A stretch of 21,064 nucleotides of DNA from a virus, in the IMG/VR virus record IMGVR_UViG_3300007734_000455, positions 1 through 21,064 of that record. One strand, written 5' to 3'. The first letter of the stretch is position 1, and the number at the start of each line of letters is the position of its first letter. A program made the position numbers and the translations under genes. Below the pieces are notes generated by a model. It worked only from the letters and a program-made list of their open reading frames with translations, searched no databases and was not told where the DNA came from. This document shows positions 47 to 4,792 of the stretch, piece after piece.

Positions 47-304
47 TTAATCCACCTTGCTAACCAGCACATGCAATGTGCCTGATCCACCGGCAGTAAC
101 AGCCCACAAATCTTCACCATCTACCAGCGACAACCGCAATACATCACCGTTATCCATTATGTAACCGTTTGTTGATGTAACACCGCTATTACCAATAAAC
201 ACTTCATGCTTAGCGTGTAGTAATACATCACGCGTTACATTATCAACGCTAATGATTGATTGCCTTGTACCTGTAACTGTTACCTGGCTAGTTATTATCG
301 CCAT
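47..304 (-). CDS. Small beta-rich structural-type protein
   Basis: An 85-residue protein: MAIITSQVTVTGTRQSIISV, then LLHAKHEVFIGNSGVTSTNG, then MDNGDVLRLSLVDGEDLWAV and TAGGSGTLHVLVSKVD. The TVTGT opening, vYIG-x-SGVTxxNG and final Ala-Gly-Gly strand match small phage proteins often annotated as head or tail accessory proteins. Fold probably all-beta. ATG 304 with GTGAGG about 10 bases upstream is chosen over ATG 349, which has an extra 15-residue head inside the glycosyltransferase. The role in the virion is inferred. Confidence 0.7.
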   Translation of the reverse strand: MAIITSQVTVTGTRQSIISVDNVTRDVLLHAKHEVFIGNSGVTSTNGYIMDNGDVLRLSLVDGEDLWAVTAGGSGTLHVLVSKVD

Positions 305-1022
305 TAATCTGTTCCTCACTCTGTAATCTCGCACGCCTGAACCGTGCAAAGTCTTGGTGTTGCTTCTTACCTATCCACATCTTGCGTTGATGTTCCATCT
401 GCACACCGGTGTGTGCATATAGTTTATACCCAAAACTCTTAGCCCTAATGCACCACAACAAATCTTCACCCACCCATTCATGATGCAATGGCATATCCTG
501 GTAAAAGCACCACTTATCACCCTGATGTGTTTGATCGGCTTCTTTTACAAACCGTTCAAATACTGATCTATGTACAAGTATTGCACCTGTACCAGCCGCA
601 TCCACTTCAATGATGCTATCTTCTTCATAATCATGTACAGCGTACAATCCATTATCACTGCCTAACTTAAAGATGCAAGGCACTGGCTCTAGGTATAGTT
701 CACCGACTTCCCAACCACCATGCACAACACCGGACACAATAGGCCGTTCATCTTTGTCAGCCGCACTTACTAACTTCTTAAAATGATCAACTGTAAATCT
801 CTGATCTGTATCTATCTGCAATAGCCAATCATCAGTAGTTTTATTTAAGAATGTAGCAACTACCTGATTACGCAATCTACTAATAACACCTGATCCTTGT
901 AGGCTAATAAACTGACCTAATTGTTTTTGTGATCTAGCGACATCTAAAATACTGGTCATAAAATCAGTTACTACATAACCAGGTGATGTAATACCTATGG
1001 TTATCTTTTCTGTATCCTTCAA
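288..1022 (-). CDS. Second glycosyltransferase, GT-A type
   Basis: A 244-residue protein. KITIGITSPG starts the nucleotide-binding fold; DDWLLQIDTDQRF carries the DxD metal site (Asp71, Asp73); IIEVDAAGTGAILVHRSVFE is the mid-domain sheet; WVGEDLLWCIRAKSFGYKLY (Glu186-Asp187) and MEHQRK (His211) complete the family pattern. Acceptor unknown. TTG 1022 is preferred (overlaps the previous TGA, GGTGG about 8 bases upstream); GTG 1034 is an alternative but has its purine-rich site directly adjacent. It is not adjacent to the other glycosyltransferase, about 5.7 kb away. Confidence 0.82.
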   Translation of the reverse strand: MKDTEKITIGITSPGYVVTDFMTSILDVARSQKQLGQFISLQGSGVISRLRNQVVATFLNKTTDDWLLQIDTDQRFTVDHFKKLVSAADKDERPIVSGVVHGGWEVGELYLEPVPCIFKLGSDNGLYAVHDYEEDSIIEVDAAGTGAILVHRSVFERFVKEADQTHQGDKWCFYQDMPLHHEWVGEDLLWCIRAKSFGYKLYAHTGVQMEHQRKMWIGKKQHQDFARFRRARLQSEEQINGDNN

Positions 1023-1177
1023 ATGGACATCCACCCTTCATATTGAGCATTTGGATTATCTCTATGCCATTGCTCTTTTAACCTGTTTTGATGCACCCAA
1101 TCTACTTCATGTGTGGGCAATCCACAGTAATGACACAATGATGTACCCAGGCTTTTATAGACATGCTTACAATCCAT
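1019..1177 (-). CDS. Zinc-ribbon microprotein (52 aa)
   Basis: A 52-residue protein that starts MDCKHVYKSLGTSLCHYCGL and goes on PTHEVDWVHQNRLKEQW to the end EGWMSI. Cys3, His5, Cys15 and Cys18 are placed for one zinc, with the THEVDW segment following. It shares TGATG with the lysozyme stop and its TGA overlaps the likely TTG start of the glycosyltransferase, so both borders are tight. Function unknown. It lies between a wall hydrolase and a glycosyltransferase. Confidence 0.75.
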   Translation of the reverse strand: MDCKHVYKSLGTSLCHYCGLPTHEVDWVHQNRLKEQWHRDNPNAQYEGWMSI

Positions 1178-1608
1178 CAATACCAGCCATGCTTTTTATG
1201 AAATGCAAGTGCCTGGCATGGATTGTTATGCCTATGCTTTATGTACTTTAATCCGGCATCTATCTGCCTGTAAGGATTTTTCTCTTTTAAGCCTAGAATC
1301 TGAGGAATCCCAAAAGCACTAGATTTTTTATTTTTAGCCTTATGATCCCAACGGCTCTCTCTAAACCACAATTCATCAACGCAATAAAATTGTGTAAAAG
1401 AATAATCAAGTTGATGGAATGTATATTGCTTTAGATTAGATTTGTAAATTATTTCGGAATTCGCTCTTGTAATGGGCAAAAATGTCATTAAACATAGAGT
1501 TATCCCAAATAGCCAGCACCTTGCAAGCCATCCCCTTCGGGGCTTGCATTTTTGGCCTTTACGCCAAATGCTAAGGCGTGAGCCTAGCACATATAAGCAA
1601 GTTGTCAT
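1177..1608 (-). CDS. Exported lysozyme-like transglycosylase
   Basis: A 143-residue protein with two parts. Residues 1-50 form an N-terminal export signal: a long basic head (RKGQKCKPRRGW), a hydrophobic core CWLFGITLCLMTFLP and a possible cleavage area TRANS. Residues 70-143 are the actinobacterial transglycosylase-like domain: DELWFRESRWD with catalytic-type Glu84, SSAFGIPQILG, QIDAGLKYIKHRHNNPCQAL and HKKHGWY at the end; Cys76 and Cys131 may form a disulfide. It would cut glycan strands from outside, independent of the holin. AGGAG 8 bases from the ATG at 1608. A CRP-like dyad lies just upstream. Confidence 0.85.
   Translation of the reverse strand: MTTCLYVLGSRLSIWRKGQKCKPRRGWLARCWLFGITLCLMTFLPITRANSEIIYKSNLKQYTFHQLDYSFTQFYCVDELWFRESRWDHKAKNKKSSAFGIPQILGLKEKNPYRQIDAGLKYIKHRHNNPCQALAFHKKHGWY
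1523..1547. repeat. Hairpin inside lysozyme signal region
   Basis: GCAAGCC (1523-1529) and GGCTTGC (1541-1547) form a perfect 7-bp inverted repeat around an 11-base loop. ATTTTTGG follows on the plus strand, so it could stop plus-strand transcription; on the minus strand it lies in the coding part of the basic signal head. A chance or minor regulatory structure. Confidence 0.3.
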
Positions 1609-1642
1609 TGCGTAACTCCTAAAATCATCTCAATATGTGAGA

Positions 1643-1658
1643 TGTGATCTAGTTCACA
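1643..1658. promoter_or_regulatory. Perfect CRP-type dyad TGTGA-N6-TCACA
   Basis: TGTGATCTAGTTCACA has both half sites of the CRP/FNR-family consensus intact and sits in the only 50-base gap between the small zinc-ribbon gene and the lysozyme-like gene, 35 bases before the latter's ATG. All 10 specified bases match; about 0.02 such sites are expected in a random 21-kb sequence of equal base use. It could bind a host CRP-family regulator. Confidence 0.55.
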
Positions 1659-1763
1659 CTAATTTAATTTCTTTTGACTTCTCATTAATATGTAACAGAT
1701 GTAACAAGATTGATCGCTAATAATCCAGTTACCACATTTATTGCATCTGATTGGTTCGCTCAT
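1659..1763 (-). CDS. Zinc-ribbon microprotein (34 aa)
   Basis: A 34-residue protein MSEPIRCNKCGNWIISDQSC followed by YICYILMRSQKKLN. Two C-x2-C pairs nine residues apart (Cys7, Cys10, Cys20, Cys23) form a minimal zinc ribbon with a basic tail. It starts inside the end of the nuclease gene (26-base overlap), with purine-rich GAGAGAG close upstream. Its TAG ends one base before the perfect CRP-like dyad. Very small size lowers trust, but the cysteine pattern and placing support it. Confidence 0.6.
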   Translation of the reverse strand: MSEPIRCNKCGNWIISDQSCYICYILMRSQKKLN

Positions 1764-4690: not shown

Positions 4691-4708
4691 AATTAACCCC
4701 TTCCGGTC

Positions 4709-4758
4709 AATTGCGTTTGTAAATGCAATTAAACACTACCCCACCGACAAATGCAATT
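4709..4758. repeat. Repeat cluster AAAYGCAATT in control region
   Basis: AAATGCAATT occurs as direct copies at 4721-4730 and 4749-4758, and a third copy, AAACGCAATT, is inverted at 4709-4718. The inner copy and the inverted copy form a near-palindrome with two bases between arms, right at the predicted transcription start. Operator or replication-origin iterons are both possible. Confidence 0.45.
4728..4756 (-). promoter_or_regulatory. Candidate promoter of the small-gene operon
   Basis: On the minus strand TTGCAT (4756-4751) and TTTAAT (4733-4728) are separated by exactly 17 bases, giving 3 of 6 and 5 of 6 matches to sigma-70-type hexamers. Predicted start near 4721, about 31 bases before the first ATG of the run (4690). 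It lies in one of the few real gaps in the genome. Confidence 0.45.
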
Positions 4759-4776: not shown

Positions 4777-4792
4777 TGTGATCTACCTCACC
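4777..4792. promoter_or_regulatory. CRP-like dyad (one mismatch)
   Basis: TGTGATCTACCTCACC matches TGTGA-N6-TCACA at 9 of the 10 specified bases. It overlaps the stop codon of the metallophosphoesterase and lies upstream of the proposed promoter for the small-gene operon, centred about 63 bases before the predicted transcription start. One mismatch could occur by chance in 21 kb; location is the main support. Confidence 0.4.

What the first reader, a model, noticed from the sequence alone, without database searches (positions are those of the whole stretch)
1643..1658. Perfect CRP-family operator in a phage gap before an exported lysozyme
TGTGATCTAGTTCACA is an exact TGTGA-N6-TCACA dyad in a genome with few gaps, directly after a 34-aa gene and 35 bases before a wall-hydrolase start. 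An exact 10-base match is expected about 0.02 times in 21 kb. This suggests that a host CRP-type regulator may tie expression of a late or exported hydrolase to host energy or carbon state. Activator or repressor action is not decided: no clear -35/-10 pair was found at the right distance.
Basis: partly seen in the sequence, partly recalled or inferred. Interest (0 to 1): 0.66.

Follow-up and report, generated by a model that had tools for sequence, protein, structure and literature searches.

The report
CRP-type switch in actinobacterial phage promoters
The short palindrome is real and conserved: it matches the binding site of a common host regulator (CRP/GlxR) and forms half of a promoter module that unrelated freshwater actinobacterial phages share, here probably driving the late genes from inside the start of a wall-hydrolase gene.

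Summary
TGTGATCTAGTTCACA lies at 1643-1658 and matches the GlxR/Crp consensus TGTGANNTANNTCACA at 12/12 positions. Of 16 complete close relatives found by protein homology, 15 keep it. It is half of a composite: the dyad abuts a second repeat, TCTCA-N5-TGAGA (IR2). The composite recurs before unrelated genes in 21-kb and 27-110-kb phages and is absent from 84,980 prokaryote genomes. In large phages it sits at fixed distances upstream of a sigma70-type promoter; the dyad-IR2 gap is 0-2 or 9-11 nt, never between, i.e. one helical turn apart. In the lysozyme group a TANNNT box starts 40-41 nt after IR2 (57 of 58 sequences), inside the lysozyme ORF, so the predicted promoter starts inside the gene. 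A covarying three-way-junction RNA begins there. Permuted contigs place the element between the replication module and lysozyme-terminase-capsid-tail, as expected of a late promoter. A second CRP-like site (4777-4792) is conserved at another promoter. Nanopelagicales, a plausible host order, carry a Crp with the mycobacterial recognition helix, but no class III cyclase was found, so the link to energy or carbon state is unsupported. Binding, sign of regulation, true host and the IR2 ligand are unknown.

The parts
1643..1658 (-). IR1: CRP/GlxR-type dyad TGTGAACTAGATCACA
   Evidence: 12/12 match to TGTGANNTANNTCACA; 15 of 16 complete close relatives keep it, 12 as the exact TGTGAN6TCACA dyad
1628..1642 (-). 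IR2: second inverted repeat TCTCA-CATAT-TGAGA, abutting IR1
   Evidence: 10/10 in most of 59 upstream regions of an unrelated gene found by protein only
1581..1589 (-). Predicted extended -10 box TGC-TAGGCT, inside the hydrolase ORF
   Evidence: TANNNT starts 40-41 nt after IR2 in 57 of 58 group-A sequences although the start codon moves and the reading frame differs
1573..1576 (-). Predicted transcription start (inferred, not mapped)
   Evidence: About 5-8 nt downstream of the predicted -10; inference
1514..1573 (-). Three-way-junction RNA at the predicted 5' end of the transcript
   Evidence: Covarying helix; model hit 1501-1586, 103.6 bits, window in the training set; fold -26.1 kcal/mol
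1177..1608 (-). 143-aa exported wall hydrolase (lytic-transglycosylase-like, aggregation-promoting-factor C-terminal domain)
   Evidence: phrog_12661 E 1e-18; NF052397 68.5 bits vs cut-off 40
1659..1763 (-). 34-aa Cys-rich (zinc-ribbon-like) peptide gene ending at the dyad
   Evidence: conserved with the element in A1 relatives
288..1034 (-). Glycosyltransferase, next gene in the putative late operon
   Evidence: phrog_34859 E 1.7e-26; order kept in permuted contigs
4777..4792 (-). Second CRP-type site GGTGAGGTAGATCACA at the end of the metallophosphoesterase gene
   Evidence: kept at the same place in all distinct A1 relatives covering it, N6 varying around a central A, usually TA
4728..4756 (-). 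Promoter-like TTGCAT-N17-TTTAAT downstream of the second CRP site
   Evidence: TSS not mapped

Best explanation
The dyad is a binding site for the host's CRP/GlxR-family regulator. It is the upstream half of a phage promoter module: CRP site, then IR2, then a -10 box 40-41 nt further on (with a TTGNNN -35 in the large-phage version). In the window the module most likely activates the late operon. CRP at about -76 and an unknown factor on IR2 at about -61 recruit host RNA polymerase to an extended -10 (TGC-TAGGCT, 1589-1581) inside the first codons of the hydrolase gene. The transcript then starts with a three-way-junction RNA and runs through hydrolase, glycosyltransferase, terminase, capsid and tail. 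Shown: sequences, conservation, spacing, RNA covariation, gene order. Inferred: CRP binding, activation, TSS, late timing.
For: 12/12 match to the published GlxR consensus. Kept in 15 of 16 complete close relatives. The composite stands before unrelated genes. In 59 upstream regions found by protein only, IR1, IR2, -35 and -10 stand in fixed order; IR1-IR2 gap 0-2 (15 cases) or 9-11 (38), none 3-8. TANNNT 40-41 nt after IR2 in 57 of 58 group-A sequences, in two frames, and in 40 of 40 independent A2/A3 relatives that keep both repeats. Large phages: 36 GTGAN6TCAC sites in seven contigs or contig parts vs 4.1 expected; in the four contigs checked, 24 of 25 lie outside ORFs of 80 aa or more. Host-order Crp: 109 of 121 genomes, recognition helix identical to M. 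tuberculosis CRP 3d0s. No phage-encoded cNMP-binding protein in 41 records. Late-operon position. IR1 changes on one side only, arguing for protein-DNA contact, not an RNA stem.
Against: No binding or transcription data. The host is inferred: MCP hits are all mycobacteriophages, 8 of 41 element records carry WhiB. The candidate host order has 0 of 121 genomes with the perfect site, and near-sites examined were in coding sequence, so no host regulon backs the specificity. The dyad centre (~-76) is not in standard class I phase, and the second site stands at 51, 56-57 or 61 nt from its hexamer. Many A2/A3-type relatives lack the module. The group-A promoter has no -35, and its predicted start is downstream of the hydrolase ATG.
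Confidence: 0.6

Rival explanations
1. The dyad is a CRP site used for repression: host Crp holds the late or hydrolase promoter down until late infection.
For: Phage T1 promoters are repressed by host cAMP-CRP (PMC6737242). No -35 is seen in group A.
Against: IR1 and IR2 lie upstream of the -35/-10 region at fixed distances, an activator geometry; GlxR acts mostly as an activator (PMC4254451).
Confidence: 0.15
2. Both repeats bind one or two regulators other than Crp (phage-encoded or another host factor); the resemblance to the CRP site is convergent.
For: The composite is absent from 84,980 genomes; host genomes lack perfect sites; IR2 is not enriched in the host order.
Against: The central TA of the GlxR consensus is kept while neighbouring N positions drift; IR1-like sites occur without IR2; the small window proteins shared with the large phages do not resemble DNA-binding proteins.
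Confidence: 0.15
3. IR1 and IR2 act as RNA hairpins (terminator or leader structure) in read-through mRNA from the 34-aa gene.
For: IR2 can form a 7-bp stem; the 71-nt region folds better than shuffles, z -2.6.
Against: IR1 positions 1 and 5 vary while their partners never do; some relatives break the left arm of IR2 (TTCCA, GTCCA) and keep the geometry; no T-run; in large phages the repeats lie upstream of the promoter.
Confidence: 0.06
4. Chance palindrome without function.
For: Short motif.
Against: Conservation, composite structure, fixed spacing, enrichment.
Confidence: 0.02

Closest known systems
GlxR (Corynebacterium) / Crp Rv3676 (M. tuberculosis) operators
   Same: Consensus TGTGANNTANNTCACA (PMC4254451); candidate host Crp has the identical recognition helix
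   Different: Site is on phages, abuts IR2, and the candidate host order lacks perfect sites and class III cyclase
CRP-repressed promoters of coliphage T1
   Same: Host cAMP-CRP acts on phage promoters (PMC6737242)
   Different: T1: repression in E. coli lysogens; here a composite in actinobacterial phages with activator-like geometry
Phage lambda late promoter pR' region (from general knowledge)
   Same: Position between replication and lysis/terminase/structural modules; promoter followed by a special leader RNA
   Different: No Q or qut identified; the -10 lies inside the first lysis-type gene; upstream CRP + IR2
HK022 put RNAs (from general knowledge)
   Same: Structured RNA at the predicted 5' end of a phage transcript
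   Different: Different fold (three-way junction), no sequence relation tested, antitermination not shown

Membership tests
CRP/GlxR-type operator | Sequence TGTGANNTANNTCACA | tested here: met
   12/12 in the window
CRP/GlxR-type operator | Selected and conserved in relatives | tested here: met
   15 of 16 complete close relatives; 59-region set; but absent in many A2/A3-type relatives
CRP/GlxR-type operator | Host has a Crp/GlxR with the matching recognition helix | tested here: inconclusive
   Yes in Nanopelagicales, but the host of this phage is not proven
CRP/GlxR-type operator | Host genome carries a regulon of the same site | tested here: inconclusive
   0 of 121 genomes of the candidate order have the perfect site; imperfect host sites were not fully assessed and the host is not proven
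CRP/GlxR-type operator | Bound by the protein in vitro or in vivo | not testable with these tools
   Needs gel shift or ChIP
Class I CRP-activated promoter | Site at -61.5, -71.5, -82.5 or in phase | tested here: inconclusive
   Predicted about -76 (window) and one turn further in most large phages; IR2 sits at about -61; TSS not mapped
Class I CRP-activated promoter | Sigma70-type -35/-10 downstream | tested here: inconclusive
   Met in most large-phage promoters; window version has only an extended -10
Lambda-type late promoter | Lies before lysis, terminase and structural genes | tested here: met
   Permuted contigs L108, L089, L005, L004
Lambda-type late promoter | Q/qut antitermination | not tested
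   No Q search made; only the covarying RNA was found

The most novel reading that the evidence does not exclude
Unrelated freshwater actinobacterial phages share a promoter code made of a strong host-Crp site plus a phage-only second operator (IR2), not seen as a composite in cellular genomes. In small phages it drives a late transcript that starts inside the lysozyme gene with a three-way-junction RNA that controls elongation or stability, and Crp may act without cAMP.
Probability: 0.3. Interest if true: 0.8.

Novelty: new variant of a known kind. Interest (0 to 1): 0.62.

Why it matters
Control of transcription in the phages of abundant freshwater actinobacteria is essentially unread. The module gives a sequence code (dyad, IR2, spacing) that can locate promoters in many uncultured phages, suggests that one conserved host regulator is borrowed by unrelated phages, and links a predicted late promoter to an undescribed structured RNA. 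Crp without an evident cyclase in the candidate host order raises the question of what signal, if any, the phages read.

Tried and rejected
RNA-hairpin reading of IR1 rejected: one-sided changes without compensation. A -10 inside the IR2 loop (YATANT) was considered from group A alone and dropped, because the large-phage versions have a clear -35/-10 starting 15-17 nt downstream of IR2 and the group-A TANNNT falls at the same distance. Phage-encoded Crp: none in 41 records. Host regulon for IR2: at chance level. Shared regulator between window and large phages: the short shared proteins look like a holin-type membrane protein and a Cys-rich peptide, not DNA-binding proteins. Host CRP regulon via near-perfect sites: the examples examined lie in coding sequence. 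Rfam: no credible match. GenBank phages: no DNA match to the window, none to the large-phage 54-aa protein; actinophage KU886271 is not held. One covariance model was first built with a mis-shifted structure (R1) and replaced by R2.

Full report
1. The observation. The dyad TGTGATCTAGTTCACA is at 1643-1658. All main genes are on the - strand, so the functional reading is TGTGAACTAGATCACA. It begins at the base after the stop codon of the 34-aa ORF and ends 34 nt before the ATG at 1608 of the 143-aa hydrolase. Under a first-order Markov model GTGAN6TCAC is expected 0.17 times in the window and found twice. The second, 4777-4792, is the only one-mismatch hit.

2. Conservation near home. A protein search with the hydrolase gave 32 IMG/VR loci. 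Among 16 relatives that carry the 34-aa gene with complete upstream sequence, 12 have the exact TGTGAN6TCACA dyad, 3 have TGTGGTGTAGATCACA, and one (L032) has lost the stretch. The spacer varies (ACTAGA, ACTAAA, GGTAAA) around a kept central TA, as in the GlxR consensus TGTGANNTANNTCACA (PMC4254451). A second group of relatives (L011-L024) lacks both the 34-aa gene and the dyad.

3. The composite. Directly after the dyad stands a second repeat TCTCA-N5-TGAGA(T), IR2. A pattern scan found the pair in many viral contigs before different genes: hydrolase genes of three divergent groups (A1, A2, A3), a 54-56-aa protein (B) and an 87-aa protein (C) of larger phages. A scan of 84,980 prokaryote genomes found none.

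4. Unbiased promoter set. Loci were collected with the B protein alone, giving 59 distinct upstream regions. Most have IR1 (9-12 of 12), IR2 (10 of 10), then 15-17 nt, then TTGNNN-N17-TANNNT (in some rows the automatic scan picked another pair, and by eye many of those sequences also carry TTGTAT-N17-TAGACT-type pairs). The IR1-IR2 gap is 0, 1, 2, 9, 10 or 11 nt (6, 1, 8, 19, 17, 2 cases) and never 3-8. This one-turn step, with IR2 fixed relative to the promoter, is what two DNA-bound proteins working together or on RNA polymerase would leave.

5. The window promoter. In 58 distinct group-A sequences a TANNNT hexamer starts 40 or 41 nt after IR2 in 57 (TAGGCT, TATGCT, TACTCT, TACCCT), while the start codon sits mostly 13-22 nt after IR2 and the hexamer falls in two reading frames. 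This is the distance at which the large phages have their -10. In the window it is TGC-TAGGCT, 1589-1581, inside the hydrolase ORF, so the predicted start (~1574) lies downstream of the ATG. A further test with A2- and A3-type hydrolases found by protein only gave 40 upstream regions with both repeats: all 40 have gap 0 and TANNNT at 40/41. About 95 have no module, and a few keep IR1 with a half-broken IR2. So the geometry is rigid when the module is present, but the module is not universal.

6. A structured RNA. At the predicted start begins a three-way junction. In A1 the third helix has 100% paired cells with three pairs changed on both sides; over the two helices tested, 20 double-changed cells were seen against 6.5 in shuffles, although the shuffle test on the number of such pairs was weak (50/500). 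In A2/A3, 5 of 7 pairs of that helix change on both sides, 0 of 500 shuffles. Between L003 and L030 the same nucleotides are read in different frames, so the RNA rather than the peptide appears conserved. A covariance model finds it in A1 and A2, more weakly in A3, and in the L011-L024 group that lacks IR1/IR2, but not convincingly in the large phages. Rfam has no credible match.

7. Where it sits. Permuted contigs give the order primpol, gp49-like, 189-aa, 34-aa gene, module, hydrolase, glycosyltransferase, 100-aa, terminase, portal, protease, capsid, tail (annotation). This is the junction of replication and late genes, as for lambda pR' (general knowledge). Late timing is inferred.

8. More CRP sites. 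The site at 4777-4792, overlapping the stop codon of the phosphoesterase gene, is kept in every distinct A1 relative that covers it, with varied spacers, before TTGCAT-N17-TTTAAT. Its distance to the hexamer is 51 nt in most, 56-57 or 61 in others, so phasing there is not strict. In seven large-phage contigs or contig parts GTGAN6TCAC occurs 36 times against about 4 expected, clustered; in the four contigs checked, 24 of 25 sites lie outside ORFs of 80 aa or more.

9. The regulator. None of 41 element-bearing records encodes a cNMP-binding protein, so the ligand should come from the host. The phage is actinobacterial: MCP matches are all mycobacteriophages, terminase is closest to Gordonia phages, and WhiB is in 8 of 41 records. 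Nanopelagicales genomes were reached with a 16S pattern; 109 of 121 carry a cNMP-binding protein, nearly always a single Crp-sized one, with [25 protein letters not shown] as in M. tuberculosis CRP 3d0s apart from one conservative change outside the recognition helix. Two cautions: no genome of 121 has a perfect site, and none of 41 has a class III cyclase while C. glutamicum rings as control. Other cyclase classes were not searched. The host of the window phage is not proven.

10. Mechanism. Best reading: host Crp on IR1 (~-76) and an unknown factor on IR2 (~-61) activate a weak promoter with an extended -10. Repression, another regulator, and RNA hairpins are weighed as rivals. Host CRP acting on phage promoters has precedent in coliphage T1 (PMC6737242). 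Literature searches found no report of this composite, within an open-access library only.

Noticed in passing
window 4707-4731 (-): Inverted repeat AATTGCATTTACAAACGCAATT just downstream of the second promoter, conserved in A1 relatives; possible operator.
   Followed up: no
L011-L024, about 20-60 nt upstream of the hydrolase match: Relatives without IR1/IR2 keep a TGATANNCT box and the RNA, with a different upstream motif GACACGCC.
   Followed up: partly
window 1019-1180 (-): 53-aa Cys-rich ORF with TTG start between hydrolase and glycosyltransferase; homologs lie near the CRP-site clusters of large phages.
   Followed up: partly
L444 585-8773 (G009 about 80.6-88.8 kb): All six GTGAN6TCAC sites of a 110-kb phage contig lie within 8.2 kb, suggesting an early regulatory region.
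   Followed up: partly
Nanopelagicales genomes (G042-G165): Crp nearly universal, yet no class III cyclase found and GTGAN6TCAC rarer than its reversed control.
   Followed up: partly
L366, L392, L393, L613, L618: Variant IR2 with left arm GTCCA and intact TGAGA, same spacing; IR2 may not need to be a palindrome.
   Followed up: no
L032 around its hydrolase match: A relative with the 34-aa gene and the RNA but with IR1 (partly), IR2 and the -10 deleted; real deletion or assembly fault.
   Followed up: no
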